NCBI GenBank assembly: GCA_036500345.1
Contig: DASYCE010000002.1
Span: 124,001 to 188,000, forward strand
Length of the DNA: 64,000 nucleotides
From: Gemmatimonadales bacterium
GTDB lineage: Bacteria; Gemmatimonadota; Gemmatimonadetes; Gemmatimonadales; GWC2-71-9
Direction: 5' to 3'
Below, in pieces: positions 3,679-38,710 of this stretch. Position 1 is the first letter of the stretch; each line of letters begins with the position of its first letter. The position numbers and the translations under genes were made by a program. The notes under the pieces were generated by a model that searched no databases, was not told the origin of the DNA, and was given only the letters and a program-made list of their open reading frames with translations.

Positions 3679-3696
3679 TGTTGCGTTGACGCAACA
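3679..3696. promoter_or_regulatory. Palindromic site TGTTGCG-N4-CGCAACA, candidate enhancer
   Basis: The 18-bp sequence TGTTGCGTTGACGCAACA has 8-bp inverted arms around a 2-bp centre. It lies in the gap between divergent genes, about 100 bp upstream of a strong -24/-12 promoter candidate. The core GTTGCG-N4-CGCAAC recurs exactly at 15791 and approximately at 11222, 30617 and 38673. Sigma-54 activators bind such dyads 70-200 bp upstream of their promoters. Binding by either activator in this window is inference. Confidence 0.6.
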
Positions 3697-3782
3697 GCCG
3701 CGAAGTTGCTGGCCGAACCCCAGTGTCTCGGCAGGTCGACATTGGGCATGTCGCGATCGCAGATTCGTCTTCTACCAACAGA

Positions 3783-3798
3783 TGGCACCGCTCCTGCA
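3783..3798 (+). promoter_or_regulatory. Sigma-54 (-24/-12) promoter candidate for TonB receptor
   Basis: TGGCACCGCTCCTGCA matches the consensus TGGCACG-N4-TTGCW at 10 of 12 positions, with both invariant doublets (GG, GC) at correct spacing. Transcription would start near 3809, about 50 bp before the receptor ATG. Confidence 0.65.
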
Positions 3799-3856
3799 CC
3801 ATCGAACCCGTTCTCCATTCGATCGATCCGTACTGACTCGCGCAACCTGGACGGCT

Positions 3857-6800
3857 ATGCCGATGCGTCTTTCCCAGCCGATTGGCCGCACGATCCTCCT
3901 CGCGGCGGCACTTGCAATCTTCGCGGCCACGACTCGCGCCGCGGCACAGAGCCTGACTGCCGGCTCGCTGACCGCGACGATTGTCGACCAGGGCCACGCG
4001 CCGCTGCGCGACGTGACTGTCACCCTCGAACGCAACGGATCGGCCTATCGCACGGTCGCCACCAATCGACTCGGTGTTGTGGCCTTTGCCGGTCTCACTC
4101 CCGGCTCCTATTCGGTCCTCGCCGAAGAACTCGGCTATCAACCAGTCCGGATGCGTGGCGTCTCCGTGGTGAGCAACGGTCGGTCATCGCTTACGATCAC
4201 CCTGGTGAGAAGGCCGCCGCCGATCACCACCGTCGACGAGATCCCCTCGTCGGCAACGGTTGCGACCACGACTGCGGAACGCGCCATCAGTGGCGACGCC
4301 TTGCGCCTCTTTGCCCGGCGACATGACATCACCGGCACCGCCAGCGCATTCTCCGAAGCGGATGTCCCGCTCGACGGCCGCGACGGTCTCGTCCTGAGCG
4401 GCGACGGACTCCGCCCGGCCTATTCATCGCTCGTCGTCGACGGCATGCGTGAAGCGCTGCTTCGCCACCCCGGCATGCCCAGCGAACCTGCGTCGGCGCC
4501 ACTCTTCGCGCGCGACGGCGTGACCCAGACGCTCTTCACCGGTTTTGCCGGCAGCGGCGAATGGCCCACGTCGCTCGGTGCGTTGATGGCGGCCGATACC
4601 CGCAGCGGCAACGGAAAAGTCACCGTGCAGCCGTGGGCGACATTCAGCAGCGCCAAGCTCGGCGGCCGCGGTGCCGACAATCCGGGCGATTCGAGCGCGA
4701 CCTCGTTCCAGGCCGGAATCGCACTCGGTGGGTCGATCAAGCGCGATACGGCATCCTGGTTCATTCGTGGTGACTACCAGCAGATCGAATTGCCGACGGC
4801 GAATCCGTTCGCAGTGGGGTCGGCGGTGACCGACTCGGTCGCTGCTGTGCCGAAGACGGTAACCTTGCCGACCAATTCGCCGGCCCTCGATCTGGGCCGC
4901 TGGCTCTCGCCGACGGTGCGCAGCTGGAAGGGCGGCAGCGCGAGCGGCCGGCTCGACTGGCGGTTCGGATCCAACACGGCGCTGGCGTTGCGAGCGGGCG
5001 GGGCGTCATGGACCGAGGACAATCCTGATGTCGGACTCGAGCTTGCGAGCGCTGCAGGCGCGCATCTGAGTGCGCACGACGTCTCTGCAGCGGGGTCGCT
5101 CACCACCGGCAGCGACAACCTCACCAGCGAGACGCGTCTCGGCTTCCACACCAGCAAGCGTGATTGGACCGGCGCCGCCGTGCCGTACACCGGAATCGTT
5201 GCTGAGGGCGTCGCTGTCGGTGGTGCGGCAACGCTCCCCGGAACCTTCGAAGAAACCGGCATCGAACTCTCCGAAACCGCCACCTACCGTTCCGGCATCA
5301 ACACGGTGAAGGGTGGCGGCGCGCTGCAGCACCGCACGGTGAACTACGATTGGCTTCCTGGGGGCGCCGGGCGCTTCTATTTCGGCGACGTCGCGACATT
5401 CGGCGCCGGGCAGGGCGCCTTCTACCAGGCGATCAATTCCGCGCCCGCGCCCGACCTCGGTGTGACCGACATTTCGCTCTTTGTCGAAGATGAACTGCAG
5501 GCCACGCCGGCGCTGCTGATCTCCGCCGGTTTCCGTCTGGATCACGAGACCCTCCCATCCGACGCCGTCAACGGCAACGCCGAGTGGGGACGCGTCTCCG
5601 GCTTTCCCAATAACGTGGTGCCGGCGGACAAGACCAGCCGCGACATCGGGCCGCGCGGCAGTTTCTCATGGGATGTCAGCGGCAGCGGGCGGACACTCGT
5701 TCGTGGCGACGCCGGGATCCTCTCCGGTCAATACGATCTCACCGCGCTGGCGGAAGCGGCGGAATTCGATGGAACCGTGAGTGTGCGGCGTGCGACCGGT
5801 ACACTCGACTGGCCATCCGTTGGCGCCTCGGCCGGGAATGATGCCGGTGAAGCGTTGACCACCTTCGGTCCCGACGTCCGCAAGCCGCGATCATTCAAGG
5901 CCGACCTCGCGCTCGTCCAGCACCTCGCCGGGGCAGCGACGTTGACGTTCACCGGCGGTTATCGCCATGGCGATTACCTGCTGCAGCGCGAGGACCTCAA
6001 TCGTGTTGCCGGCGTGGTAGCGACCGGCAGTGACGGTCGTCCGATCTACGGTGCGCTCCAGCAGTTCGGTGGATTGGTCACCCCGGACGTCGGATCCAAT
6101 CGTCGCTTTCCGGAATTCGACATGGTCTACGGGCTCACCTCGACCGGCTACAACGACTACTACGAAGCGACGGCGACGCTCGACGACCGGCTCGCCGCGC
6201 ACTTCAACGCATTGGTCTCCTACACCTACTCACGGACGACCGACAATCTCCCCGGCGAATTGAGCGCGGATCCCGCCGATCGCCTCTCGCCGTTCCCCGA
6301 CGGCCTCAACGGAGCGCGCTGGGAAGACGGCCGGTCCGATTTCGACGTGCCGCATCGCATCGCGGCAACGCTGCGGTACACGTCGGCTGGGGCGTCGCCG
6401 ATCACGGTGGCCGCACGCTACCGATATCGGTCCGGATTTCCGTTCACACCGGGGTTCCAGCCTGGCGTCGATGCCAACGGCGATGGATCGGGGAACAATG
6501 ATCCGGCGTTCGTGGCGACGTCGATCGACGGCATGCAGGCGCTCACGGCGGCCAATGCGTGCCTCGGCTCGCAGGCCGGTGCCTTTGCGGAGCGCAACAG
6601 CTGTCGCGATCCCGGAGTTCACGCGGTCGATCTGCAGGCTTCGATCGCGATCCGTCACGGCTGGGCGATCACGATCGACGGATTCAACCTGATCGGGTCG
6701 ACGACCGGACTGTACGATCACGCGGCCGTGCTCGTCGATCCGTCGCGCAGCATCACGACAGACGGGTCGGGACAAACCGTGCTCCCGCTCATCGCCAACC

Positions 6801-6874
6801 CCGACTTCGGAAAACTTCTCAGCCGCCGGGGAGAGCCGCGAGTCCTCCGGATCGGTATCCGGGTGGAGAACTGA
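3857..6874 (+). CDS. Oar-like TonB-dependent outer-membrane receptor
   Basis: This 1005-residue protein starts at the ATG at 3857 (a second ATG at 3863 is also possible); further upstream the frame runs through the promoter. Residues 1-32 are a signal peptide ending AAAQS. Residues ~33-120 form a carboxypeptidase-regulatory-like domain (ATIVDQGHAPLRDVTVTL, then the GLTPGSYSV turn). A plug-like region and a long beta-barrel follow. The last residue is Asn rather than the usual aromatic. Oar-like receptors move large or unknown substrates across the outer membrane; nothing here shows which. A lipoprotein gene follows 2 bp downstream and is probably cotranscribed. A sigma-54 promoter candidate and a palindromic site lie upstream. 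Confidence 0.85.
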   Translation: MPMRLSQPIGRTILLAAALAIFAATTRAAAQSLTAGSLTATIVDQGHAPLRDVTVTLERNGSAYRTVATNRLGVVAFAGLTPGSYSVLAEELGYQPVRMRGVSVVSNGRSSLTITLVRRPPPITTVDEIPSSATVATTTAERAISGDALRLFARRHDITGTASAFSEADVPLDGRDGLVLSGDGLRPAYSSLVVDGMREALLRHPGMPSEPASAPLFARDGVTQTLFTGFAGSGEWPTSLGALMAADTRSGNGKVTVQPWATFSSAKLGGRGADNPGDSSATSFQAGIALGGSIKRDTASWFIRGDYQQIELPTANPFAVGSAVTDSVAAVPKTVTLPTNSPALDLGRWLSPTVRSWKGGSASGRLDWRFGSNTALALRAGGASWTEDNPDVGLELASAAGAHLSAHDVSAAGSLTTGSDNLTSETRLGFHTSKRDWTGAAVPYTGIVAEGVAVGGAATLPGTFEETGIELSETATYRSGINTVKGGGALQHRTVNYDWLPGGAGRFYFGDVATFGAGQGAFYQAINSAPAPDLGVTDISLFVEDELQATPALLISAGFRLDHETLPSDAVNGNAEWGRVSGFPNNVVPADKTSRDIGPRGSFSWDVSGSGRTLVRGDAGILSGQYDLTALAEAAEFDGTVSVRRATGTLDWPSVGASAGNDAGEALTTFGPDVRKPRSFKADLALVQHLAGAATLTFTGGYRHGDYLLQREDLNRVAGVVATGSDGRPIYGALQQFGGLVTPDVGSNRRFPEFDMVYGLTSTGYNDYYEATATLDDRLAAHFNALVSYTYSRTTDNLPGELSADPADRLSPFPDGLNGARWEDGRSDFDVPHRIAATLRYTSAGASPITVAARYRYRSGFPFTPGFQPGVDANGDGSGNNDPAFVATSIDGMQALTAANACLGSQAGAFAERNSCRDPGVHAVDLQASIAIRHGWAITIDGFNLIGSTTGLYDHAAVLVDPSRSITTDGSGQTVLPLIANPDFGKLLSRRGEPRVLRIGIRVEN

Positions 6875-6876
6875 CC

Positions 6877-7869
6877 ATGCGCCGACTCTCATCGATCTGC
6901 TGCTTCGCCGTCATCGCGGCCACCGCCTGCACCAATGCAGGCCAGAAGCTGACCTATCCCGCCCTTTCGGTGGGCCACCTCTCGGTCGCGGTCTATTTCG
7001 ATCGCGACGACAGTCACTCGCTCACGTCGGCGGATACCTCCTTCACGGGCGCCACCGTCGATCTGCTGGCGCCGGGCGGCTCGGATACCCTCCGCCGCGC
7101 GACGACCGACGCCCAGGGAGTGGCGACATTCGATTCACTGCCGATCGGTTCCTACCGCGTCGTCATCGATCAGCACGCGCTGTCGGATTCTGTCGGCACG
7201 GTAGCCGGTGATACCGGTTCGATCCGGCTCGTAACCACTGCCGATTCGATCGTCGCCACCCGCATCATCCGTCTCGGCTACGCCGACCTCACCGTCGCGC
7301 AGGCCCGCGCGGCGGCACCCGGTCGCAAGGCGTTCGTCCGCGCTGCCGTGACCGTGCCGCTGCAGACGTTCCGCGATACCAGCACGTTCCTGGTCGACAG
7401 CACCGGATCGATTCGTGTCCTGCCGTCACGGATGCGCTCCGGCCTTGGCGGTGACAACATCGGCGATACCGTCCTCGTGCTCGCGCCAACCGGTGCCGCG
7501 CTCGGCCAACCGATCCTCGACAACGGGGTGATCACGCCGCTGTCCGCCGGCGCCGCACCTGCGCCGCAGACGGTCTCGGTCACCGATGCCCGGACGGCAA
7601 AGGGTGGTACGCTCGATGCCGCGCTGGTCAAGGTGACCGGCGCCATGATTCAGGATACCGTTGGGTCGTCGCCGGACTTCATCGTCCGCATCGCCGACCC
7701 GGCCGATTCCACCAGGACGGTCGATGTACTCATCGATGCGCAGCTCAACGCGCCGCACGTGTTTTTCCCGATCGGCGCGACGGTGACGATGGAAGGTGTC
7801 CTGGTGCCGATGGGGACGGGTACCTGGGTCATCAAGCCGCGCAACGCAGCCGACATCACCATCAACTGA
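6877..7869 (+). CDS. Lipoprotein with SdrD-B-like domain
   Basis: A 330-residue protein whose ATG follows the TonB receptor stop by 2 bp, so the two form one transcription unit. The N-terminus has a lipobox (VIAATAC, Cys near 18), predicting a lipoprotein. Residues ~32-100 look like an SdrD-type B domain: VYFDRDDSHSLTSADTSF, then FTGATVDL and FDSLPIGSYRVVID. The C-terminal ~200 residues resemble the repeated beta-strands of OB-fold surface domains, but I cannot name the family. Its pairing with the receptor suggests a surface partner that binds or presents the same substrate (inference). Confidence 0.75.
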   Translation: MRRLSSICCFAVIAATACTNAGQKLTYPALSVGHLSVAVYFDRDDSHSLTSADTSFTGATVDLLAPGGSDTLRRATTDAQGVATFDSLPIGSYRVVIDQHALSDSVGTVAGDTGSIRLVTTADSIVATRIIRLGYADLTVAQARAAAPGRKAFVRAAVTVPLQTFRDTSTFLVDSTGSIRVLPSRMRSGLGGDNIGDTVLVLAPTGAALGQPILDNGVITPLSAGAAPAPQTVSVTDARTAKGGTLDAALVKVTGAMIQDTVGSSPDFIVRIADPADSTRTVDVLIDAQLNAPHVFFPIGATVTMEGVLVPMGTGTWVIKPRNAADITIN

Positions 7870-7882
7870 ATCAGTCCGCGCG

Positions 7883-9115
7883 TCACGAATTCGTGGCGCG
7901 CTTCGACCGCAAACGGGATACGGCGGTCGCGCCGATGATCAGCGCAGCTGGTGCAGCGAACAGCTCCACGCCGCCCGCTGCCACACCGGTGATCGCGGCA
8001 GCGAGCGCCACGATCACGGCCGACGCGAAGCCGGCGGCCGCCGTGAACCGCCAGCCGGCGGCGCCGCTCGTCCACCCGAGCCATCCCCACCACCAGCCGA
8101 TCCAGAGGATGCTCCACCAGATCGCACGAGGATCGATCGTGTCGACGAAGGGATGGACGAACGCCCATCCGACGTCGAGCGTCGGAGTGATCGTCTCGGC
8201 GCGGGTCACCCCGGCGGGGAGGCCGATCCGGTTTAGTCGTACGCCGGCGCGCGACCAGGCAAAGTCAAACTGGACTGGCGTGCCCAGCGGAATGTCCATC
8301 ATCCGGTCGAAGCGCCACGACGGAGCGTGAAATCCCCAGCGAGCGCCGCGAAGCGCAACTTCCAGCACCAGCGCCGAACTGATCTCGCTCACCGAGACGC
8401 GCGTCCGGTGATCGGCGTCGACAACACGAACGAGCGACGCCGATCGCGCCGGCAACGTGTCGCTGGTTCGCGCCGCTTCAATCGTGAGATTGATCCGATC
8501 GGTCACCCTCGGCATCGAATCGAGAGGGTCATTCGGAATCGTGGTGCCGTTGACGCTCGCGCGCTGGATCGTTCCCGGGAACGGATCATGGCCGGCCCAC
8601 CGATACAGGATCTGCCCGACCCACGGACCGTCGTCGGCCGGAACGGGAGAGAACGCGACGCCGCTGATGAGAAATACGGCGGCGATGCACCCGAGCACCG
8701 CGGCGGCGTGCCGGCGCCCTTCTGTGGCGCTCTGTCCGCCCAGCCGTGACATCGCCGGATAGAGCCACCACGCCAGCGCCGCGCCGGTAGTGTTGGTGAG
8801 GACGTCGCCGAGCGATGCATCGCGTCCCACCAGGAAAAGGCCCTGCGTGACCTCGATCATCACGGTCAGCGGAACCACCACCGCCAGCAAGCGACTGCAA
8901 CGGATTCGCAGTGCGCGTGCCGCGAGGCCGAGTGGGATGAACAGCAGGATATTGAGGACGATATCGGCAGAGCCGCTGTCGCCGCAGGAGATACAGTACC
9001 AGTGGAGTGCGGCAACTCGGGCCGCCTGGTCGGGCGCGGGTCGCAGGGTGAGCCACCCGATCACCGCGAGCCACGCCATCGCGACGACGCGCCACGCCGT
9101 CTCCCGGCGATTCAT
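7883..9115 (-). CDS. VanZ-like membrane protein with C-terminal lectin-like region
   Basis: A 410-residue protein. The first ~130 residues are a VanZ-type four-helix membrane domain (VLNILLFIPLGLAARAL, and DVLTNTTGAALAWWLYP). A central soluble stretch (~160-310) looks like a concanavalin/LamG-type beta-sandwich. The C-terminus has two to three further membrane segments. VanZ-like proteins are common in exosortase-linked polysaccharide loci, although their biochemical role is not settled. The start overlaps the stop of the upstream glycosyltransferase (ATGA), so it ends a three-gene minus-strand operon (11132 to 7883). Confidence 0.8.
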   Translation of the reverse strand: MNRRETAWRVVAMAWLAVIGWLTLRPAPDQAARVAALHWYCISCGDSGSADIVLNILLFIPLGLAARALRIRCSRLLAVVVPLTVMIEVTQGLFLVGRDASLGDVLTNTTGAALAWWLYPAMSRLGGQSATEGRRHAAAVLGCIAAVFLISGVAFSPVPADDGPWVGQILYRWAGHDPFPGTIQRASVNGTTIPNDPLDSMPRVTDRINLTIEAARTSDTLPARSASLVRVVDADHRTRVSVSEISSALVLEVALRGARWGFHAPSWRFDRMMDIPLGTPVQFDFAWSRAGVRLNRIGLPAGVTRAETITPTLDVGWAFVHPFVDTIDPRAIWWSILWIGWWWGWLGWTSGAAGWRFTAAAGFASAVIVALAAAITGVAAGGVELFAAPAALIIGATAVSRLRSKRATNS

Positions 9116-11132: not shown

Positions 11133-11221
11133 TAGTGCAGCCCCGCGAGTTGCATCCAGCCGGGAATTCTCACCGCAAGATACCGATCAAAAAATAAACA
11201 GTTCATCGTGTTTACCATGCT

Positions 11222-11237
11222 GATGCCAGCGCGCAAC
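11222..11237. promoter_or_regulatory. Near-match to the palindromic enhancer motif
   Basis: GATGCCAGCGCGCAAC matches GTTGCG-N4-CGCAAC at 10 of 12 defined positions. It lies about 70 bp upstream of a -24/-12 candidate at 11298, a usual distance for a sigma-54 activator site. Confidence 0.4.
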
Positions 11238-11297
11238 AGATTTGTAAGTCATTGTTACGAAAGCATTTGATAATTTTCGCCAAGCGGCTAATCCGAG

Positions 11298-11313
11298 TGG
11301 TCTGCCTATTGCG
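11298..11313 (+). promoter_or_regulatory. Sigma-54 promoter candidate upstream of riboswitch
   Basis: TGGTCTGCCTATTGCG has GG at -24 and TTGC at -12 with exact spacing (8 of 12 consensus positions). Transcription from it would begin near 11324, just before the riboswitch candidate, giving a leader of about 180 nt. Confidence 0.45.
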
Positions 11314-11360
11314 AATATCGAACAGCGTCGGGGCGAAAGTCGCTCCGGAAAATCGTCGTG

Positions 11361-11458: not shown

Positions 11459-11503
11459 AACTCCCTGGTCACCGGACCAGGTCAACCTGGGCTGAGGCTC
11501 GTC

Positions 11504-14032: not shown

Positions 14033-14740
14033 CTACTTGCGGCGGCGGCGCAGACCTGCACCGGCAAGACCAGTGAGTCCGAACGCCACCAGGCTGAGCG
14101 TCCCCGGCTCCGGAACGGTCGGCTCAGGCACGTGCGCGATGAATTCCTGCTCACCGTGGCCAGCGCCAAGATCGTCCGAGATGACGACCCACTCGCTGGG
14201 GATGATCGAGCTGGCGTCGGCAAGGTCGATCCAGTGCTGGACGTCGGTGCCGTCGTAGTCGCTATGACCTGAGGGGTCAAATCCCATGATTGTCCAGATC
14301 GCGAACTGGATCTCCGGATTGCCACCCCATCCCGGCGACCCGTGGGGATTGTCGCTCGAAAAATCGTCGGTTCCGGACATGAACTGAACCAGCGACGCTG
14401 CCTTCTCATATGCAAGCGGCGCGATGCCAGGCTGATTGACCTGGCTGAAATCGCTTCCGCCGAGGGAGGTGATCCACGCGTTGTAAAATCCGGTCGGAAT
14501 GTTCGGCGTGATGTTGTCGGTTTCGTCGACGCACCAGATCTGGAACGTCCCCCCGCCGGCAAACTGACCCGACAGGCCGTTGTACGAGCCGATCGATTCA
14601 CTGATGTTGCAGGGATTGTTGAACACGTTCACCCCTGAACAGCCGGCCACCTGGAACTGCACGTTGACCGGGGCTTGAGCTTGGGCGCCGACCGCGACAA
14701 ATGCGAGAAGGGCCGCGCCAGCTGCGACACTACGAATCAT
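14033..14740 (-). CDS. PEP-CTERM sorting-domain protein 1
   Basis: 235 residues. An N-terminal signal peptide ends at AQAQA. The C-terminus is a textbook PEP-CTERM tail: VPEPGT, a hydrophobic helix (LSLVAFGLTGLAGAG) and the basic end LRRRRK. The exosortase encoded at 32248-33153 is the obvious processing enzyme. The mature domain has conserved Cys pairs (VAGCSGVNVFNNPC and IWCVDETDN) and an alternating beta pattern, but no family I can name. It is clearly paralogous to the protein encoded just upstream, so the pair is a tandem duplication. I see no separate promoter in the 83-bp gap. Confidence 0.93.
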   Translation of the reverse strand: MIRSVAAGAALLAFVAVGAQAQAPVNVQFQVAGCSGVNVFNNPCNISESIGSYNGLSGQFAGGGTFQIWCVDETDNITPNIPTGFYNAWITSLGGSDFSQVNQPGIAPLAYEKAASLVQFMSGTDDFSSDNPHGSPGWGGNPEIQFAIWTIMGFDPSGHSDYDGTDVQHWIDLADASSIIPSEWVVISDDLGAGHGEQEFIAHVPEPTVPEPGTLSLVAFGLTGLAGAGLRRRRK

Positions 14741-14823: not shown

Positions 14824-15552
14824 CTACTTCCGGCGGCGGCGGAAACCTGCACCCGCCATCCCGACGAGTCCGACTGCCAGCATCGCCATCGTGCCCGGCT
14901 CCGGGGTCGGCACTTCCTCCGGGAACGAGACCTGCGCCAGGAACTCCTGCTCACCGTGACCCGCTCCGAGGGCGTCCGAGATGATCACCCAGTCGTTCGG
15001 GTCGATCGACGCCGTGTTGGCGGCCGCAAAAGCTGTCCAGTGCGCGACATCGGCCGCATTGTAGCCCGAGTGACCAGTCGGATCGTAGCCCATCAGAGTC
15101 CAGATTGCGAACTGGATCTGCGGGTTTCCGCCCCACGTGGTCGCGCCATGAGCGGTGGCCGGGTTCGATGGATCGATGAAGTCATCCGTGCCGCTCATTT
15201 CCTGGGTAAGCACCGCCGCTTCGGTGTAGTTCAGCGGGGCGCCAGCCGGCTTGTACACGTTGGTGAACGGCCCGTTCAGCGAAGTCGCGAAGGCGTTGTA
15301 GAAGCCGGTCGGGATGCCCGGCGTGATCTGGTCGGTTTCGTCGACGCACCAGATCTGGAACGTCGGACCACTCGAGAACTGGCCCTGGAGGCCGTTGTAC
15401 GAGCCGATCGAAGCGCTGGAACCGCAAGCGTCGTTGAAGACGTTGACGCCAGAGCAGCTGGCAACCTGGAACTGCACGGGAACGGTCTGCGCGCTTGCGC
15501 CGGTTGCAAGGACCGCAGCGAGGGCAACGCCACCAACAATACGGCGCAGCAT
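14824..15552 (-). CDS. PEP-CTERM sorting-domain protein 2
   Basis: 242 residues with a signal peptide ending SAQT. The PEP-CTERM tail is TPEPGT, the helix MAMLAVGLVGMAGAG and the basic end FRRRRK. The mature region shares with its neighbour the motifs VQFQVA-CSGVNVFN, FQIWCVDETD, IPTGFYNA, IQFAIWT-MG and GAGHGEQEF. PEP-CTERM proteins are exported, then recognised and cleaved by exosortase, usually in bacteria that make exopolysaccharide. A sigma-54 promoter candidate lies at 15621-15636 and a palindromic enhancer candidate at 15791-15806. Confidence 0.93.
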   Translation of the reverse strand: MLRRIVGGVALAAVLATGASAQTVPVQFQVASCSGVNVFNDACGSSASIGSYNGLQGQFSSGPTFQIWCVDETDQITPGIPTGFYNAFATSLNGPFTNVYKPAGAPLNYTEAAVLTQEMSGTDDFIDPSNPATAHGATTWGGNPQIQFAIWTLMGYDPTGHSGYNAADVAHWTAFAAANTASIDPNDWVIISDALGAGHGEQEFLAQVSFPEEVPTPEPGTMAMLAVGLVGMAGAGFRRRRK

Positions 15553-15620: not shown

Positions 15621-15636
15621 AGCATACGGTATGCCA
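15621..15636 (-). promoter_or_regulatory. Sigma-54 promoter candidate for PEP-CTERM gene
   Basis: On the minus strand TGGCATACCGTATGCT fits TGGCACG-N4-TTGCW at 9 of 12 positions with both doublets. Start of transcription would be near 15609, 57 bp before the ATG. It also contains the inverted repeat GCATAC-G-GTATGC, so it could be part of a hairpin or operator instead. Confidence 0.5.
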
Positions 15637-15790
15637 CCTGAGCGGCCGCATTGTCGACAAGACCTCCTCGGAAGATCAATCATGCGTAACCAATTGGTAT
15701 AACATGTCTTACGTCGCGAAAGCCGGCAAGAGAATCGATGAAAATGAGGGTGTGCATCCAGACGGTGTCGTAGCCCGTCAACCACAACTT

Positions 15791-15806
15791 GTTGCGGCAT
15801 CGCAAC
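15791..15806. promoter_or_regulatory. Palindromic site GTTGCG-N4-CGCAAC between divergent genes
   Basis: GTTGCGGCATCGCAAC is an exact match to the motif at 3680-3695, differing only in the central four bases. It lies about 160 bp from the PEP-CTERM promoter candidate and about 190 bp from the protease promoter candidate, so it could serve both. The remaining ~525-bp gap (15553-16077) shows no gene. Confidence 0.6.
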
Positions 15807-15984
15807 GGCACCTTCCCGAGGGGGCACATCGGCCATTTTGTGGACCTGACGCGACAATCGGTTCGCAAGCGGAATTCTCCCGCAGATAGAAATTGGATAA
15901 AAATTTGACGATCAGTCTCTGTCATTTCCCGGGGATGACAGCAAGAAAACAGCTAAAACTGGCATTTGATCGGAATACGACTCA

Positions 15985-16000
15985 TGGAACGGGACCTGCA
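15985..16000 (+). promoter_or_regulatory. Sigma-54 promoter candidate for repeat subtilase
   Basis: TGGAACGGGACCTGCA matches the -24/-12 consensus at 10 of 12 positions with both doublets. The predicted start near 16011 leaves a 67-bp leader before the ATG at 16078. Confidence 0.6.
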
Positions 16001-16077: not shown

Positions 16078-20733
<4,656 letters not shown>

Positions 20734-24078: not shown

Positions 24079-24081
24079 CGA

Positions 24082-29786: not shown

Positions 29787-29789
29787 CGG

Positions 29790-30911
29790 TTAGTGATCCG
29801 GCACCAGTGCACGGTAGAGCGCGACGTGGCGGCGGGCGTAGTGCCGCGCGTCGTAGAATTGCATGGCGCGTGCGAAGCCGCGTTCTCCGAGGCGGCGGCG
29901 CTCATCGCCGTCCCGCACCAGCCGGGCGACCTCGCGACCGAGCCGTTCGATGTCGTCAGGCGGGACGAGAATGCCGGTCCGTCCGTGGTCGATCAATTCG
30001 GGCATCGCGCCGACGGACGATGCGACAACGGGGAGGCCACACGCCATCGCCTGGACCACCACCAGTCCGAACGCTTCGAGCCGCGGCGTATGGATCAACA
30101 GATCCGCTCCCTGCAGCCAGGGGACCACATTCGACTGGAATCCATGGAATCGGACGCGGGTTCCCAGCGTCGCGCGGGCTTGCTCCTCGAGCGCCGCGGT
30201 TCGATCCGGGGCGCCGGTCCCGAGCACCGCCACGTTCCAGGGTGAGTTGCCAAGGAATCCCTCGGCTGCTGTGGCCGCCTGCAACGCGAGGTCGACCCCC
30301 TTTTCGGGACCGAAATGTCCGATGATCAGCGCCAGTGGCTCGTCGCCGATGCCCAGCGATTCCCGGAGACGGTGGCGAACTCCCGGGTCGGGCCTGAAAT
30401 GGGTCAGGTCGATGCCGATGGGGATGACCGCGACCTTGCTCTTGCGGACCAACGTATTGGCAATGAAGTACTTGCGACGGTCGTCCGACGCCGTCAGGAC
30501 GCGATCGATCAAAGGGAGGGAAATCGCGTTTCGCAGGAAATTTCTCGCCCCTTCGGTCTCGATTCCAAGACTGCGGTGGAAAGTCATCACCGTGCGGACT
30601 CGTGGATTGGTCAACCGTAGCGCCGACGCAACATACTGGCTTCCATGGTCATGCGCATGAATCACCGCCACCTGCCGCTCCCGGCAGATCCGGCGCACCT
30701 GCGAGAGCTCGGCCCGGGTCGGACGGGCCGCGAATGAGAGCCCGCCGACGAAATCGGCGCGGTCGGCGAATTCGGCGACTTCCGGCTCCGGATTCCTGAG
30801 CGCAACGAGCCCGCATTCTGCGCCGAGTGGGCGCAGATGGTCGATGAGGGTCAGGATCGCATCTCGTCGGCCACCCCGGGCAGCCGACAGCGTCAGATGG
30901 AGGACTCGCAT
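29790..30911 (-). CDS. Glycosyltransferase, GT4 family, first gene of operon
   Basis: 373 residues. MRVLHLTLSAARGGRRD opens the acceptor domain and HAHDHGSQYVASAL follows. ALIIGHFGPEKGVDLALQAA, GADLLIHTPRLEAFGLVVVQAMACG and VASSVGAMPELIDHG define the donor domain. It starts a nine-gene minus-strand operon ending at 20775. The ATG lies only about 10 bp from the predicted start of a -24/-12 candidate at 30930, leaving little room for a ribosome site, so the true promoter may lie further upstream. Confidence 0.9.
   Translation of the reverse strand: MRVLHLTLSAARGGRRDAILTLIDHLRPLGAECGLVALRNPEPEVAEFADRADFVGGLSFAARPTRAELSQVRRICRERQVAVIHAHDHGSQYVASALRLTNPRVRTVMTFHRSLGIETEGARNFLRNAISLPLIDRVLTASDDRRKYFIANTLVRKSKVAVIPIGIDLTHFRPDPGVRHRLRESLGIGDEPLALIIGHFGPEKGVDLALQAATAAEGFLGNSPWNVAVLGTGAPDRTAALEEQARATLGTRVRFHGFQSNVVPWLQGADLLIHTPRLEAFGLVVVQAMACGLPVVASSVGAMPELIDHGRTGILVPPDDIERLGREVARLVRDGDERRRLGERGFARAMQFYDARHYARRHVALYRALVPDH
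30617..30632. promoter_or_regulatory. Near-perfect copy of palindromic motif inside a gene
   Basis: GTAGCGCCGACGCAAC matches GTTGCG-N4-CGCAAC at 11 of 12 positions. It lies within the glycosyltransferase coding sequence, about 300 bp from the promoter pair at 30930-30963. Enhancers can act at that distance, but a chance match inside coding DNA is possible. Confidence 0.3.
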
Positions 30912-30929
30912 AGGGTCTCTCGCTCATGA

Positions 30930-30963: not shown

Positions 30964-31055
30964 CTGAAGCGGCTTCGTCCATTCTATTCGATTCACGATC
31001 CGCCCCGCTGCCCGCTCCGGGCCGACCGAATCACCTTGATGATTTGAGGACCTGC

Positions 31056-31583: not shown

Positions 31584-31601
31584 TCCGGCGCGGCGCGGGC
31601 T

Positions 31602-31630
31602 TTCCCACGCTGGCGATCAGAGCGTGGGAA
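31602..31630. terminator. Hairpin at convergent gene ends
   Basis: A 10-bp stem TTCCCACGCT/AGCGTGGGAA with a 9-nt loop. It overlaps the last codons of the EpsI gene and follows the membrane-protein gene, and could end transcription from both sides. Confidence 0.55.
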
Positions 31631-33153: not shown

Positions 33154-33908
33154 CCACCCTTCCGGAACAGCATCACCGGAATCGTCTTGAGCATGATCCG
33201 GAGATCCTCCCAGATGCTCCGCCGGGCGATGTACTCGAGGTCGTGCTGCACCTTGAGCTTGACGTCCTCGACCGAGGTGTCGTACTGCAAGTGGACCTGC
33301 GCATGCCCGGTGATCCCGGGGCGAACGCGCTGGCGGCGCTGGTAGTCGGGGATCTGCTCGCGGAGCGACGTGAACAATTGCGGACGTTCCGGACGCGGAC
33401 CGACCAGATTCATGTCGCCGCGGATGACATTGAGCAATTGCGGCAACTCGTCGAGACGGCAACTGCGCAGGAATCCGCCGACCAGCGTGAGGCGGTTATC
33501 GCACGTCGACGCCCACACCGCCTGTCCGGCGGCTTCCGCGTCGATCTTCATCGTGCGGAACTTCACGATCGTAAATGGACGGCCGCCGCAATCATCGAGT
33601 CGCCGCGTCGACCCGGCACGTCCGGTGCGCCGATCGGCCCGGCGCCGAAGATCGAGGCCGACGCGCGTCTGGGTGTAGAAGACCGGGCCGCGCGACGTGA
33701 GCTTCACCACAATTGCGATGACGATCCACGCGGGCAGCGATGCGACGAGAATCAGCGTGGCCACCACGACGTTGAGCCCGCGGATCAGCCGTTCGTCGCG
33801 TGACAGGCGCCGCTCTGCGACCCCCTGAACCACGGTCGTGGCGGGGCGGGTGCGGGGAATGGGCGTGTCTTCGGCGCGAGGCATCGTTGACGTCAAAGGA
33901 CCAGACAT
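33147..33908 (-). CDS. Initiating sugar-phosphate transferase (bacterial sugar transferase family)
   Basis: 253 residues with one membrane helix (~47-68) after a polar N-terminus. It carries the family core: GPVFYTQTRVG, FTIVKFRTMKIDAE, FLRSCRLDELPQLLNVI and GDMNLVGPRPERP. These enzymes move a sugar-1-phosphate onto undecaprenyl phosphate, starting repeat-unit synthesis. It is the short, single-helix catalytic type. It follows the export-protein gene by 9 bp and overlaps the exosortase gene. Confidence 0.94.
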   Translation of the reverse strand: MSGPLTSTMPRAEDTPIPRTRPATTVVQGVAERRLSRDERLIRGLNVVVATLILVASLPAWIVIAIVVKLTSRGPVFYTQTRVGLDLRRRADRRTGRAGSTRRLDDCGGRPFTIVKFRTMKIDAEAAGQAVWASTCDNRLTLVGGFLRSCRLDELPQLLNVIRGDMNLVGPRPERPQLFTSLREQIPDYQRRQRVRPGITGHAQVHLQYDTSVEDVKLKVQHDLEYIARRSIWEDLRIMLKTIPVMLFRKGGW

Positions 33909-33917
33909 GGCAGTGTG

Positions 33918-34727
33918 CTAGAGGACAATATGGACAAGATACACCAACCCTCCGAGAGCCGTCGCGCCACCAATGATCCGCCAGAACAACGCAGCGGACG
34001 GCTTGGTGGCCAGGGTGATCTCGTCACCCGCCTGGACGTTGAGCTGATCGAGCGTAAGCCCCTTCTGTACCGCATCGGCGAACTCATCGCCATCGACGAT
34101 GATGCGATCACCGCGCTTGATCGTGGACTTGTTCCAGCGCACGTTGTTTGCCGGACCGCCGGCGTCGATCATGATCTCTTCGCTCATCAGTCGCGACGCT
34201 GGCGCCTGGAAGAAGCCCGGCTTGTTGAGCGCGCCGAACATCGAGATCCGCACGAAGGTCGTCGCCGTGACGGCGGGGTCGTTGACGACGCGCTTGAGCT
34301 GCTGGGTCAGATAGGCCTGCACCTCCGACCGGAGGATCCCGTGCATGTCGATCGATACCCCACCCGGGAGATCGAGCGTCCCGCGCGGTGAAATCGTGTA
34401 TGTCGCGCTCAACCCTGGTTCCGTCAGCACTTCCACCTTGATCTCATCTGCGGGGTGGATATCTCCATTGGTGAGCCGATCACGAATCACATCGGCAGCC
34501 GCCTGTTTCGACATCCGAAGTGCCTGGCTGTACGCAGTCGAGGTGAGGCCGCGCTGAATGTCGTCGAGCGCAGCCTGCAATTCGGCTCGCGTCACCATCG
34601 GCCGCTTGGCCGCAACGAGCGCCGTATCGCTCTGCATCGTTGTCGGCTGCTGCGTCGGCACCTGCGCAGACGCCTGTACCATCACACCGACGACAAGCGC
34701 GCCGGCGACCAGCTGGCAGATCCTCAC
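33918..34727 (-). CDS. Polysaccharide export protein, Wza-like
   Basis: 269 residues from a GTG at 34727 with an AG-rich ribosome site (GGGAG) about 9 bp upstream. A signal peptide ends near SAQ; no lipobox Cys is present, unlike classical Wza. The region ~85-170 fits the polysaccharide export fold (IHPADEIKVEVLTEPGL, TYTISPRGTLDLPGG). ISMFGALNKPGFFQAPASRL starts the SLBB-like part. A C-terminal helix (WRIIGGATALGGLVYLVHI) could span the outer membrane. It should form the outer-membrane channel and work with the Wzc-like kinase encoded at 36127. Confidence 0.87.
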   Translation of the reverse strand: MRICQLVAGALVVGVMVQASAQVPTQQPTTMQSDTALVAAKRPMVTRAELQAALDDIQRGLTSTAYSQALRMSKQAAADVIRDRLTNGDIHPADEIKVEVLTEPGLSATYTISPRGTLDLPGGVSIDMHGILRSEVQAYLTQQLKRVVNDPAVTATTFVRISMFGALNKPGFFQAPASRLMSEEIMIDAGGPANNVRWNKSTIKRGDRIIVDGDEFADAVQKGLTLDQLNVQAGDEITLATKPSAALFWRIIGGATALGGLVYLVHIVL

Positions 34728-35127
34728 GCGATTTTCTCCCGCGCAGACAGGTTAGGACGAACGAACCGGGATAAAAGCACATCCCATGCTCACCGCGGCG
34801 CAATTCCAACACTCACAGTAAGTCACGGGCCGCGAACAACTTAGGCAAGATCGCGGCCACGCATGGTCACCATGGTGCGACGAAGTTGTTGCAATACATC
34901 TACGGATCGCCGTGAATTTGCAACACTGTGGGGCGAGCAGTCGGCAACACCCCTCGTTGGTTCCATGCTGGCTCGGCAGAAACATTGCACGGGGATCACC
35001 TTCCGGGCTGGTGCTGGGTGCGGCCTACAGTTGCGGTGCTGTTGTATAAATTTAGTGGCCACAACGGGTTACACACTTCATTCGGCTCGCCGATCTTTTC
35101 CCTTGGCTCGGTCTGGAGCGTGGCGCC
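34728..35127. other. 400-bp divergent intergenic region
   Basis: No gene is supported here. It holds the minus-strand promoter candidate at 34844, scattered half-sites related to the palindromic motif (GTTGTTGC at 34885 and TTGCAAC at 34918), and an AT-rich island TATAAATTTAG near 35045 that could be part of a plus-strand promoter for the response regulator. Confidence 0.4.
34844..34859 (-). promoter_or_regulatory. Sigma-54 promoter candidate for export/exosortase operon
   Basis: On the minus strand TGGCCGCGATCTTGCC keeps TGGC and TTGC at exact spacing (8 of 12). Transcription would start near 34832, about 105 bp before the GTG start at 34727, and run through export protein, sugar transferase, exosortase and epsI. 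Confidence 0.45.
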
Positions 35128-36048
35128 TTGTCACAGAACTGTCGCGCGGGCGCATCGGATTTGACCCGCCTATCGTCATTCGAAGCTGTAGAGAGTCCCT
35201 TGTCGACTGCGGACACCCTGACCGAGCGAGCCACTCCGGTTATTCTGATCGCCAACGATCAGGAATGGACCGCTCGCGCAGTCGAGAGCATCCTGGCCGC
35301 AAGCGGGTACAAGGTCACCCACGCGTATACCGCCCGGGAGACCCTCCGGCTCGCTGTCGAAACCGACCCCGATCTCGTCATCCTCGATCAGCAGTTGCCT
35401 GATTTCTCCGGGCTCGAGGTCTGCCAGCAACTGCGGGCCAATCCGCAATTCGGGTCCTCGCTTCCGATCATCATCACGACCGCCGGTCCGTCGGGTCGGC
35501 CGCAGCGGCTGAACGCCTACGCGGCGGGCGCGTGGGAGTTCTACGGCCAACCGCTCGACTCCGAAGCGTTGCTGCACAAGCTCGGCGTCTACCTCGCGGC
35601 CTATCGTGACACGCGGCGTCTCCGTCGCTGCGCGATGATCGAAGAGGGGAGCGGATTGTACACTCGCTGGGGACTGGCGCGGCGCGCCACCGAATTGATC
35701 GGCGATGCCAAGCGACTTGGCCGCGCCGTCGGATGTGTCGGCTGGTCGATCCTCAGCGGCGAAGGGACTCCCCGTATCACCGAGGCCGTAGCGGCATTCC
35801 GCGGCAACGCGCGGTCGGCTGATGCACTCGGTCGCCTCGCGTCCGGTGACTTCATTGCGGTCGTACCAGGCGCGACGACCGACGGGGCCGAACGGATGGC
35901 CGACCGCTTTCGCGATCTGCTGGCACACGCCGCCGAGATTGCGGTCGAACGGGTTCGCTCGACGGTCGTCGTCGTCGACGATCCGTCGTTGCTCCCGCCG
36001 GATGGTGATCAACTCGTCGACCGGATGGCGCACGCCCTCGCCGGCTGA
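35128..36048 (+). CDS. Response regulator with degenerate receiver and degenerate GGDEF domain
   Basis: 306 residues from a TTG at 35128 (a TTG near 35200 is also possible). The receiver domain keeps D87 (VILDQQLPD) but the conserved switch Lys is Gln141 (GQPLD), and one acidic-pocket residue is missing. The second half has the diguanylate-cyclase frame (GRLASGDFIAVVPGATTDGAE split around ASGDF, 238-242), but the GGDEF signature is ASGDF, so cyclase activity is unlikely. It may be a c-di-GMP or protein-interaction module. It lies between the export operon and the wzc-like gene, pointing to control of the same locus. Confidence 0.8.
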   Translation: MSQNCRAGASDLTRLSSFEAVESPLSTADTLTERATPVILIANDQEWTARAVESILAASGYKVTHAYTARETLRLAVETDPDLVILDQQLPDFSGLEVCQQLRANPQFGSSLPIIITTAGPSGRPQRLNAYAAGAWEFYGQPLDSEALLHKLGVYLAAYRDTRRLRRCAMIEEGSGLYTRWGLARRATELIGDAKRLGRAVGCVGWSILSGEGTPRITEAVAAFRGNARSADALGRLASGDFIAVVPGATTDGAERMADRFRDLLAHAAEIAVERVRSTVVVVDDPSLLPPDGDQLVDRMAHALAG

Positions 36049-36069
36049 CCGCTCATTGCCCGGTAAAGA

Positions 36070-36110
36070 CACAGGCCCGATCTCGAACGAGACCGGGCCT
36101 GTGCGTTTTT
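36070..36110 (+). terminator. Rho-independent terminator
   Basis: A 16-position stem with one A-C mismatch (CACAGGCCCG and TCTCG paired with their complements) and a 2-nt loop, followed by CGTTTTT. It ends the degenerate GGDEF gene and separates it from the convergent wzc-like gene. Confidence 0.85.
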
Positions 36111-36126
36111 CGCCGCTGCGTTCCAC

Positions 36127-38556
36127 TCAGGGAATCGGCGTGGCCCCGCTCGTCGCCGGGAGCGACGGCCGCTCCGTCGGTTCGTCGGTGGCGCCATAGC
36201 CGTAGCTGTACGAGTAGTACTTGTAGTCGTTCATCGTCGACCGGACGTCGTTCAGCACCGCACCGATGAGACGAATCGGCAGCTGGTCGACGATCTGCAG
36301 TTTCGCCTCGGCGAGGTCGCGTTCGGTTGCCCCCGCACGAAGCACCAGGACCAGATTGCCGGTCAGCGTACCGAGCACGAACGGATCGATACCGGCGCCG
36401 AGCGGCGGCGTATCGACGACGATCACTTCGAATTGTTCCCGCATCGCCGCCAGCAGTTCACGCATCCGGTTCGTGCCGAGCAGTTCCGGCGCGTTGCGCT
36501 TGCGCGAGCCCCCCGTGATCAGCTGCAACTTCGGATGCGACGTCGGGCGAAGCAGGTCGCGCATCGGCAATTCGCCGGCGAGATAGTCGAGGAGTCCCGG
36601 CCGCCGCTCGGCACCAAAGGTCCGGTGCAGTTCGCCGCGGCGCGAGTCACCGTCGATCAGCAGCGTGCGATAGCCTGACTCGGCGAACGACAACGCGAGA
36701 TTCGAGGACACCAGCGATTTGCCGTCGCCCGGTGATGGACTCGAGATCGTCAGCATCACCGAACCCTCGCCCAGCGCGTGCGCCAGGTTGAGGCGTACGG
36801 TGCGGAACGATTCGATGACCTGCGCTGCTTCCTCGGCCGACGGTTGTTCGCCCTTGGCGCGGCGAATCTCCGGAATCACACCGAGAATGGTCAATCCGAG
36901 ACCGCTGGTGATCTGGTCGGCGTAGCGGACCCGCTTGTCGGTCATGTCGAGCAGGAGTGCCAACCCAAGGCCGGCGCCGAGGCCGACAATGGCCCCGAGG
37001 ATGATCATCAGCGACGCGCGATTTTTCTGCGGCTGGAACGGCGCGTCCGCGGCATCGAGCACCGCGACGTCCGGCACCGCGGTCGCTTCACGTGCGCGCG
37101 CAGCGTACACCTGCTTGGTGAGGTCGGCAACGACACTCTCGTCGACCGATTTCCGTCGCTGCAACTCGGATTCCTCGATCGACCGCTGCGGAATGTCGTG
37201 CAACTCGCCCTTCTGGATGCCAATTTCGGAATCGCCACGGGCGATCATCGAGTCGAGCAGCGTCAGGTCGGCACGGGTATACGTCGGAATCGTGACGGTG
37301 CGCAGCCGGTGAATATCCTGCACGTCGCGCGGCATGTTGATCTTGCCGTCGGGTGTGACCATCGAATCGGTGTAGCGGCCCTTGTTCTGGCGGTACCGGA
37401 GTTCGTCAGCCATCAATTCGTTGACGTAGCTCATGAGCTCCGGCGAGAGCTTGGTCACGGGATTGAGGGCGTACGCGTCGGCGACCGCGGTGTCACCTCG
37501 CTGCAGTCGCGTCAGCGCGGAGGCGAGATCGCGTCGCTCCTTGCGCAGCGTCTCGACTTCATTGCGCTTGTTGAGGAATTCCGCGTAGGCGCCGGGGGTT
37601 GTCGATTGCAAGCCGGGTGCAACCGCCAGGTCCTGCCGGGGCAGCGTGATCGTCTGGATCTGGAAGCGCTGCAGCGTGGCGTCGTCCGCATCGAGCTTGC
37701 CCTGCGCTTCGACCAGCTGGGAATCGAGGGCGCGAGCGGCAATGGTGAAATCGTGGCGCTTGGTCAGCGCCGCACCCTGGACGAACTGCGCCATGATGTC
37801 GTTGAGCGTCCCGGCGGTCGGCTCGGACTCCTGCCCCGTGAAGACCAGCGTGATGAAGCGCGGATTCCGGGGCGGTACGACCGTGACGGTGAGATTGGAA
37901 ATCACCTTGTCGGCGGCTTCGTGCGTGGTGACGGCGGTGAAGTCGAAGGTCTGCCCGTACCAGCGGCGTTCGATCAGCGGCAGCCACTGGAAGCCGAAGG
38001 CACGCCCGGCGCTGTCGCCGGCGACGCCCTGCTCCTTCTGCGACGTGACGATGTCACTCAGTTCCCAGCGCTTGCCGTCCTCGGAAACCTTGAACCGGTA
38101 GTTGCCGGGGCGGTAGTTGGCGCCGATATCGAAGCCGTTGAACAGCCCGGCGTTCGGACCGCTCGGTCCCTGCGGCAGCGGTGGGCCGCCGACGCGCTTG
38201 GGGCCGGTGATATATAGCCGGCGGGCTTTCACGACCGGCTCGATGACCGCGTAGCTCTGGATGTATTCCCGCCACTGGTCCGACTGGAAGGTCGGGCTTT
38301 CGCTCGGCGCGATCTGCAGCTTGGCACGCACCACGAAACTCGGCGGCCGAAGCCGGCTGACAAGGTATCCGCCGCCGAGGCCAACGAGCGTCAAGAGAAG
38401 GACCAGCCACTTCACCCGCCTCACCGCACCGAGATAACGGAGCAGCGGACTGGTCCGCGGACCGCCGCTGGCACCGGTGAGCGGCGACCCGGGCACCAGC
38501 CCAGGTGAACCGATCGGGGCGGGAAGGGATCCGGAATGTGAAGCAAGGTTCGTCAT
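36127..38556 (-). CDS. Wzc-type polysaccharide co-polymerase/tyrosine autokinase
   Basis: 809 residues from the ATG at 38556 (TNLASHSGSLPAP follows); an upstream in-frame ATG at 38646 would cross the promoter region. An N-terminal Wzz domain is bounded by helices near 50-70 and 500-520, with a long periplasmic coiled coil between. The BY-kinase domain has Walker A SPSPGDGKS (near 607), Walker A' LLIDGDSRR and Walker B VIVVDTPPLG. The C-terminus carries the Tyr cluster YKYYSYSYGYG. Such proteins set chain length and gate export through the Wza-like channel, switching by tyrosine phosphorylation. It is divergent from the sigma-54 activator gene. Confidence 0.95.
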   Translation of the reverse strand: MTNLASHSGSLPAPIGSPGLVPGSPLTGASGGPRTSPLLRYLGAVRRVKWLVLLLTLVGLGGGYLVSRLRPPSFVVRAKLQIAPSESPTFQSDQWREYIQSYAVIEPVVKARRLYITGPKRVGGPPLPQGPSGPNAGLFNGFDIGANYRPGNYRFKVSEDGKRWELSDIVTSQKEQGVAGDSAGRAFGFQWLPLIERRWYGQTFDFTAVTTHEAADKVISNLTVTVVPPRNPRFITLVFTGQESEPTAGTLNDIMAQFVQGAALTKRHDFTIAARALDSQLVEAQGKLDADDATLQRFQIQTITLPRQDLAVAPGLQSTTPGAYAEFLNKRNEVETLRKERRDLASALTRLQRGDTAVADAYALNPVTKLSPELMSYVNELMADELRYRQNKGRYTDSMVTPDGKINMPRDVQDIHRLRTVTIPTYTRADLTLLDSMIARGDSEIGIQKGELHDIPQRSIEESELQRRKSVDESVVADLTKQVYAARAREATAVPDVAVLDAADAPFQPQKNRASLMIILGAIVGLGAGLGLALLLDMTDKRVRYADQITSGLGLTILGVIPEIRRAKGEQPSAEEAAQVIESFRTVRLNLAHALGEGSVMLTISSPSPGDGKSLVSSNLALSFAESGYRTLLIDGDSRRGELHRTFGAERRPGLLDYLAGELPMRDLLRPTSHPKLQLITGGSRKRNAPELLGTNRMRELLAAMREQFEVIVVDTPPLGAGIDPFVLGTLTGNLVLVLRAGATERDLAEAKLQIVDQLPIRLIGAVLNDVRSTMNDYKYYSYSYGYGATDEPTERPSLPATSGATPIP

Positions 38557-38616
38557 AGGCTCTGCACTTGGAGTAATCCAGACGGAACCGGGTTCCGGCC
38601 CCGCCGTGGTGTAGTA

Positions 38617-38632
38617 CGCAAACATGATACCG
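38617..38632 (-). promoter_or_regulatory. Weak sigma-54 promoter candidate for wzc-like gene
   Basis: On the minus strand CGGTATCATGTTTGCG has both doublets and TTTGC at correct spacing but only 7 of 12 consensus positions. Start near 38606 would leave a 50-bp leader. Confidence 0.3.
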
Positions 38633-38672
38633 CAGACCGCAGCCACAAGGCTACAGCTGTCGTAGTAGTGTT

Positions 38673-38710
38673 GTTGGCTACTTGCAACGTATCGTAGTTG
38701 TTGCGCAACA
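38673..38710. promoter_or_regulatory. Two palindromic elements in the wzc/activator gap
   Basis: GTTGGCTACTTGCAAC (38673-38688) matches the GTTGCG-N4-CGCAAC motif at 9 of 12 positions. Ten bp on, TGTTGCGCAACA (38699-38710) is a perfect 12-bp palindrome of the same half-sites without the spacer. They sit about 50 bp from the wzc-side and 75-100 bp from the activator-side promoter candidate. Confidence 0.5.

What the first reader, a model, noticed from the sequence alone, without database searches (positions are those of the whole stretch)
3679..38710. A recurring palindrome GTTGCG-N4-CGCAAC marks promoters of the exopolysaccharide/exosortase locus
Exact copies occur at 3680-3695 and 15791-15806. 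Near copies occur at 30617 (11/12), 11222 (10/12) and 38673 (9/12), with a spacer-less version at 38699. With equal base use, a perfect 12-position match is expected about 0.004 times in 64 kb. All but the 30617 copy are intergenic, and most sit 50-190 bp upstream of a -24/-12 sequence. The simplest reading is an enhancer for the sigma-54 activator at 38845 (or the one at 1038), defining a regulon of the TonB receptor, lipoprotein, PEP-CTERM, subtilase and wzc-like genes.
Basis: partly seen in the sequence, partly recalled or inferred. Interest (0 to 1): 0.85.

Follow-up and report, generated by a model that had tools for sequence, protein, structure and literature searches.

The report
Enhancer motif of a sigma-54 PEP-CTERM regulon
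In soil and water bacteria of the phylum Gemmatimonadota, a short mirror-image DNA word (TGTTGC-N6-GCAACA) is very probably the landing site of a master switch protein that turns on, with the alternative sigma factor RpoN, cell-surface and slime-associated genes and its own gene; the general scheme is known from Proteobacteria, but this DNA word and this switch protein are new to it.

Summary
The palindrome is real. Two of its near copies are not supported, and the core interpretation holds. The window is from a Gemmatimonadota MAG. Exact GTTGCG-N4-CGCAAC occurs twice in the 3.32 Mb assembly, both times here; one-mismatch copies are at background, so counting alone proves nothing.

Position does. 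A motif-blind dyad search upstream of 76 orthologs of the NtrC-family regulator at 38845 returns TGTTG-N8-CAACA among its top hits. A matrix from 13 of those sites finds sites in 46/62 held-out activator promoters (4.8 in shuffles). It also finds sites in 25/50 PEP-CTERM promoters of the genus (1.1 shuffled, 3 in coding DNA). Those promoters carry sigma-54 boxes (26/50 sense, 2/50 antisense).

In the window the supported sites serve an Oar-like receptor (3679), a divergent PEP-CTERM/subtilase pair (15790) and the activator itself (38672). Sites 11221 and 30616 are not supported.

Most likely this is the enhancer of the 38845 activator, with autoregulation. It works like Proteobacterial PrsK/PrsR control of PEP-CTERM genes, but the regulator scores 377 against the PrsR cut-off of 502.6 and the DNA word differs. 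It is a new variant of a known kind. Binding is inferred, not shown.

The parts
3679..3696 (.). Palindrome 1, TGTTGCGTTGACGCAACA: predicted enhancer of the Oar-like receptor promoter
   Evidence: matrix score 27.8, best in window; sites also upstream of receptor orthologs in G001, G003, G008 and between kinase and receptor in G010, G011, G026
3783..3798 (+). sigma-54 -24/-12 box TGGCACCGCTCCTGCA of the receptor gene
   Evidence: box kept, nearly unchanged, upstream of all 9 genus receptor genes, whose proteins are 39-63% identical to the window's
3857..6874 (+). Oar-like outer-membrane beta-barrel receptor (TonB-receptor-like), probable target
   Evidence: Pfam OMP_b-brl_4 4e-37 and CarboxypepD_reg; start at 3857 inferred from signal peptide
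15790..15807 (.). Palindrome 2, TGTTGCGGCATCGCAACG: predicted shared enhancer of a divergent promoter pair
   Evidence: score 18.2; same place in G001, G009, G004
15839..15856 (.). Weaker second site, TGTGGACCTGACGCGACA, 49 bp from palindrome 2
   Evidence: a partner 48 bp away also in G001 and G009
15621..15636 (-). sigma-54-like box TGGCATACCGTATGCT of the PEP-CTERM gene
   Evidence: equivalents TGGCATGCCGTGTGCG (G001), TGGCATGGGGTCTGCA (G009), TGGCACAGCAGGTGCG (G004)
15985..16000 (+). sigma-54-like box TGGAACGGGACCTGCA of the subtilase gene
   Evidence: equivalents TGGCAAGCGATGTGCA, TGGCAAGCGGCCTGCC, TGGCAAAGCTTTTGCT in orthologs
14824..15552 (-). PEP-CTERM protein (probable target)
   Evidence: TIGR02595 23.3 bits, cut-off 16
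14033..14740 (-). second PEP-CTERM protein, about 63% identical to the first; no site of its own
16078..20733 (+). Large subtilase with tandem C-terminal repeats (probable target)
   Evidence: Peptidase_S8 2.1e-54
38672..38689 (.). Palindrome 3 (degenerate), TGTTGGCTACTTGCAACG: predicted autoregulatory enhancer
   Evidence: same place (about -170 to -180 from ATG) as strong palindromes of genus orthologs
38693..38710 (.). Overlapping weak site CGTAGTTGTTGCGCAACA (the spacer-less copy)
   Evidence: score 8.7
38779..38794 (+). sigma-54 box CGGCACGTTTTTCGCC of the activator gene
   Evidence: block GGCAC-N5-TCGCC visible upstream of most genus orthologs and some outside it
38845..40347 (+). NtrC-family response regulator, proposed binder of the palindrome
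   Evidence: Response_reg + Sigma54_activat + HTH_8; TIGR02915 377 bits, cut-off 502.6
40349..41401 (+). Histidine kinase, probable partner
   Evidence: gene adjacency
36127..38646 (-). Wzc-like tyrosine autokinase, divergent from the activator; control by palindrome 3 possible, not shown
   Evidence: no sigma-54 box on its side
1038..3604 (-). Second NtrC-type regulator and kinase (rival binder, disfavoured)
11221..11238 (.). Near copy upstream of a lipoprotein gene: not supported
   Evidence: score 14.1 but no comparable site upstream of the orthologs in G001, G009, G005, G004
30616..30633 (.). Near copy inside a glycosyltransferase gene: probably chance
   Evidence: score 14.1, intragenic

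Best explanation
TGTTGCR-N4-YGCAACA is the enhancer (upstream activator site) of the NtrC-family response regulator encoded at 38845-40347. When the regulator is active, presumably phosphorylated by the kinase encoded next to it, a dimer binds each palindrome about 50-200 bp upstream of a -24/-12 promoter. It assembles into an ATPase ring, loops to RNA polymerase carrying sigma-54 and opens the promoter. Targets are PEP-CTERM surface proteins across the genome, an Oar-like outer-membrane receptor, a large secreted subtilase and the activator's own gene, so the exosortase/exopolysaccharide locus carries the switch for the proteins that its sorting machinery handles. Shown by sequence: the motif, its position, its conservation, the sigma-54 boxes, the RpoN gene. 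Inferred: which protein binds, phosphorylation by 40349, activation rather than repression.
For: Motif-blind dyad search of 76 activator-ortholog upstreams: GTTGC-N6-GCAAC, TGTTG-N8-CAACA and TTGCG-N4-CGCAA rank 1-3 (13, 13, 8 sequences; shuffled maximum 4). Matrix from the 13 exact sites: 46/62 held-out upstreams score >=8 against 4.8 shuffled. The same matrix finds sites >=10 in 25/50 PEP-CTERM upstreams (1.1 shuffled; 0.9 with column-permuted matrices; 3/50 in coding DNA), and a motif-blind search of those upstreams also ranks the same dyads first. Sigma-54 boxes within 150 bp of the PEP-CTERM ATG: 26/50 sense, 2/50 antisense, 2.2 shuffled. Receptor promoter box kept in 9/9 genus genes. Divergent PEP-CTERM/subtilase region with a palindrome between two outward sigma-54 boxes in four species. 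RpoN present, 419.7 bits. Activator has receiver, sigma-54 ATPase and Fis HTH domains, and its recognition helix (DRTTLYRL) is almost invariant in the orthologs.
Against: No binding or expression data. Exact-motif counts genome-wide are at background. The window's own activator site is degenerate (score 11.4). Half of the PEP-CTERM promoters lack a good site, and sigma-54 boxes are nearly as common without a palindrome (11/25) as with one (15/25). Several receptor orthologs keep the sigma-54 box but no palindrome. Many distant activator orthologs have only degenerate sites, and some show a sigma-70-like TTGACA element instead (by eye). Orthologs are not phylogenetically independent.
Confidence: 0.78

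Rival explanations
1. The palindrome is the binding site of the other NtrC-type regulator, encoded at 1038-2420 with its kinase at 2417-3604; the 38845 activator is only one of its targets (a cascade).
For: Palindrome 1 lies between this operon and the receptor gene; a site also lies near the kinase gene in G010, G011 and G026. Its recognition helix (TDRGNLYRR) resembles that of 38845 (IDRTTLYRL).
Against: In G022 the kinase is present without a nearby receptor gene and no palindrome is found; in further orthologs (L277-L284) the kinase upstream, where enough of it was held, has no good site. Regulators matching 1038 occur in all 61 genomes searched, but in the 11 order-level genomes without a 38845 ortholog the extended palindrome occurs once, against 18 in 13 genomes with it (my counts; reversed control 3 and 12, so only moderate evidence).
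Confidence: 0.1
2. The site is recognised by an unrelated transcription factor (for example a repressor encoded elsewhere) that co-regulates the same sigma-54 promoters; the link to 38845 is only that its gene belongs to the regulon.
For: No experiment ties the site to any protein; a palindrome with 5-7 bp arms suits many dimeric factors.
Against: Sigma-54 promoters need an enhancer-binding protein, and positions 50-200 bp upstream suit one; the motif is found upstream of orthologs of this activator throughout the order, as expected for autoregulation.
Confidence: 0.09
3. Chance: two exact palindromes in one window without function.
For: Genome-wide counts with 0-1 mismatch do not clearly exceed the reversed-pattern control.
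Against: Held-out tests in activator and PEP-CTERM promoters and positional conservation in orthologous promoters.
Confidence: 0.03

Closest known systems
PrsK/PrsR-RpoN control of PEP-CTERM genes in Proteobacteria (Haft et al. 2006, PMC1569441; RpoN dependence of pepA in Aquincola, PMC9850573)
   Same: PEP-CTERM genes preceded by an activator site and, 50-160 nt further down, a sigma-54 -24/-12 box; an NtrC-like response regulator and a kinase at the exopolysaccharide/exosortase locus; one regulator proposed for dispersed PEP-CTERM genes.
   Different: Described as confined to Proteobacteria. Their motif 1 is 17 nt ending in TTTACA; here it is TGTTGCR-N4-YGCAACA and TTTACA/TGTAAA is nearly absent (2/50). 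No PrsR above cut-off in own and 20 related genomes. Kinase is not PrsK by family score. Regulon includes an Oar-like receptor and a subtilase.
NtrC-family sigma-54 activators binding tandem palindromes (NtrC, ZraR, GlrR and others)
   Same: Domain order receiver / AAA+ sigma-54 / Fis HTH; palindromic upstream sites; probable autoregulation.
   Different: Different DNA word and regulon; tandem sites are seen only at some promoters here (about 48 bp apart at the PEP-CTERM/subtilase region).
CbrB of Pseudomonas (PMC6296734)
   Same: NtrC-family activator with a TGTTAC/GTAACA half-site resembling TGTTGC/GCAACA.
   Different: CbrB uses two or three variably spaced, non-palindromic subsites and controls carbon catabolite RNAs; orthology not tested.

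Membership tests
PrsK/PrsR PEP-CTERM-box system | Regulator is PrsR (TIGR02915, cut-off 502.6 bits) | tested here: not met
   377 bits; another regulator of the same genome scores 407; none of 21 genomes over the cut-off
PrsK/PrsR PEP-CTERM-box system | Kinase is PrsK (TIGR02916, cut-off 300 bits) | tested here: not met
   kinase at 2417: 89.9 bits; kinase at 40349: not among its best 25 families, so below about 63 bits
PrsK/PrsR PEP-CTERM-box system | Motif 1 ending in TTTACA upstream of PEP-CTERM genes | tested here: not met
   2/50 upstreams with either hexamer, no palindromic TGTAAA..TTTACA
PrsK/PrsR PEP-CTERM-box system | sigma-54 box between motif 1 and the PEP-CTERM start codon | tested here: met
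   26/50 sense against 2/50 antisense; 69-179 bp start to start from the palindrome
PrsK/PrsR PEP-CTERM-box system | PrsT TPR lipoprotein | not tested
   TIGR02917 was not searched
NtrC-family enhancer-binding response regulator | Receiver, sigma-54 AAA+ and Fis-type HTH domains | tested here: met
   PF00072, PF00158, PF02954
NtrC-family enhancer-binding response regulator | sigma-54 present in the genome | tested here: met
   TIGR02395 419.7 bits, cut-off 277.35
NtrC-family enhancer-binding response regulator | Binds the upstream palindrome and activates open-complex formation | not testable with these tools
   needs EMSA/footprinting and in vitro transcription

The most novel reading that the evidence does not exclude
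Gemmatimonadota control their PEP-CTERM/exosortase surface proteome with a two-component sigma-54 switch that is not orthologous to PrsK/PrsR: the same regulatory logic reached, or re-founded, with a different NtrC-family regulator and a different enhancer word.
Probability: 0.5. Interest if true: 0.62.

Novelty: new variant of a known kind. Interest (0 to 1): 0.52.

Why it matters
PEP-CTERM/exosortase systems are widespread, and the 2006 survey found the activator-site plus sigma-54 arrangement only in Proteobacteria. This gives a concrete 18-bp site, a candidate activator and a testable regulon for Gemmatimonadota, a common but poorly studied soil phylum. It ties the exosortase/exopolysaccharide locus to surface-protein genes elsewhere in the genome and to an Oar-like receptor and a subtilase, so that functions of unknown surface genes can be sought by their promoter.

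Tried and rejected
Counting the motif genome-wide: no clear excess over the reversed control with 0-1 mismatch, so of no use by itself. The 11221 lipoprotein site and the 30616 site were tested and dropped. The 1038 regulator as binder was tested and disfavoured. Covariation between recognition helix and motif could not be used: the helix hardly varies. Absence of the activator from G003 and G007 was traced to absence of the exosortase too, consistent with a missing contig. A plasmid search for Proteobacterial PrsR returned only GlrR, ZraR, AtoC and the like. The literature search found no work on PEP-CTERM regulation in Gemmatimonadetes in the held library.

Full report
Observation. The exact and near copies are at the stated places. 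The window belongs to a 3.32 Mb Gemmatimonadota MAG (own contig C2:124001-188000; nearly all of the 80 nearest named loci are labelled Gemmatimonadota/Gemmatimonadetes). The exact 12-letter pattern occurs twice in that assembly, both times in this window. With one mismatch it is at or below the reversed-pattern control (27 against 42), and over 101 related genomes exact counts are about 88 against 73. So the exact form is unusual in the window, but the motif is too short to be recognised by counting.

Extension of the motif. Loci of orthologs of the sigma-54 activator at 38845 were fetched from relatives. Several genus members have an exact or near palindrome 165-180 bp upstream of the ATG, e.g. 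TGTTGCGTTTACGCAACA and TGTTGCGTGAATGCAACA, followed by a conserved GGCAC-N5-TCGCC box of the -24/-12 type. A motif-blind search for 5-bp inverted dyads (spacer 0-12) in 76 upstream regions returned GTTGC-N6-GCAAC, TGTTG-N8-CAACA and TTGCG-N4-CGCAA as its top three, in 13, 13 and 8 sequences; shuffled maxima were 2-4. A symmetric matrix built only from the 13 sequences with an exact TGTTG-N8-CAACA was tested on the other 62 upstreams: 46 score >=8 against 4.8 in shuffles and 7 with a column-permuted matrix. The orthologs are related to each other, so these are not independent trials, but protein identity to the query ranges from 58 to 90% and the upstream regions differ widely.

Targets. PEP-CTERM genes were located with TIGR02595 in the ten genus genomes. 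Of 50 with about 330 bp of upstream DNA, 25 have a site >=10, against 1.1 in shuffles, 0.9 with permuted matrices and 3/50 in the first 330 bp of coding sequence; 16 score >=14, against 0.2 in shuffles. A motif-blind search on these upstreams alone again ranks GTTGC-N6-GCAAC and TGTTG-N8-CAACA first. Sigma-54 boxes lie within 150 bp of the ATG on the sense strand in 26/50 and on the antisense strand in 2/50 (shuffles 2.2). In the own genome, besides the window's gene at 14824-15552, two PEP-CTERM genes on contig C7 have sites of 15.8 and 15.3. Sigma-54 boxes are also found where no palindrome was found (11/25), so the palindrome does not account for the whole PEP-CTERM sigma-54 set.

Anatomy in the window. 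(1) Site 3679-3696 (score 27.8) is 104 bp, start to start, from TGGCACCGCTCCTGCA at 3783, which precedes an Oar-like outer-membrane receptor starting near 3857; the box is kept in all nine genus genes, the palindrome in about half. (2) Site 15790-15807, with a weaker one 49 bp away, lies between a sigma-54-like box facing the PEP-CTERM gene (15621-15636, minus) and one facing the subtilase (15985-16000, plus); palindrome and outward boxes recur in G001, G009 and G004. (3) The degenerate site 38672-38689 is 107 bp upstream, start to start, of CGGCACGTTTTTCGCC at 38779, before the activator gene. The copies at 11221 and 30616 are not supported. In G004 and G005 strong sites also lie in the divergent region between a GGDEF response-regulator gene and a polysaccharide-export gene; the window's counterpart is weak (34887, score 8.6).

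Which protein binds. The 38845 protein has receiver, sigma-54 ATPase and Fis-type HTH domains, its genome encodes RpoN, and the motif is found upstream of its orthologs throughout the order. Relatives of the rival regulator at 1038 are found in every genome searched. The palindrome next to its kinase gene occurs where the Oar-like receptor gene is divergent (G010, G011, G026) and not in G022, where no receptor gene is adjacent. This favours 38845 but does not prove it.

Comparison with the known. Haft et al. 2006 (PMC1569441) described an activator site (17 nt, ending in TTTACA), a spacer of about 63 nt and a sigma-54 box upstream of Proteobacterial PEP-CTERM genes, with PrsK, PrsR and PrsT as matching genes, and stated that among their species only Proteobacteria share it. 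RpoN dependence of a PEP-CTERM gene was later shown in Aquincola (PMC9850573). The present system has the same logic. By the curated models its regulator and kinases are not PrsR or PrsK, and the TTTACA word is nearly absent. Hence it works like PrsK/PrsR control but is not filed as that system: a new variant of a known kind.

Limits. Everything is from sequence. The genomes are mostly MAGs, start codons were chosen by heuristics (signal peptide, ribosome-binding site), and the sigma-54 box score is a simple consensus count. Phosphorylation, activation and the identity of the binder are inferred.

Noticed in passing
window 16078-20733: The subtilase carries at least eight tandem repeats of about 105 residues after the protease domain; a weak BACON_2 match suggests Ig-like domains. 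Copy number seems to differ among species (open frames of 1095 to 2021 residues).
   Followed up: no
window 15930-15953: A second inverted repeat, CTGTCATTTCCCGGGGATGACAG, lies between palindrome 2 and the subtilase sigma-54 box; possibly a site for another regulator.
   Followed up: no
window 14033-14740 and 14824-15552: Tandem pair of PEP-CTERM genes about 63% identical, probably a duplication; identical GGTTTCGTCGACGCACCA in both coding sequences gives matrix hits of 11.1 at 14519 and 15334.
   Followed up: partly
L170:6680, L173:16279: Strong palindromes (23.8, 27.0) in the divergent region between a GGDEF response-regulator gene and a polysaccharide-export gene in two genus members, hinting that c-di-GMP and export genes belong to the regulon there; the window's counterpart is weak (34887).
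   Followed up: partly
window 35176-36126 versus 35128-36048: The minus-strand ORF 35176-36126 is probably spurious; the real gene is on the plus strand and encodes a protein about 60% identical to a receiver/GGDEF-like protein of a genus relative.
   Followed up: partly
L175:2259, L176:2539: Perfect or near-perfect palindromes upstream of a 751-residue protein without Pfam match and of a gene encoding a FAD-dependent amine-oxidase-like protein in G008: possible further regulon members.
   Followed up: partly
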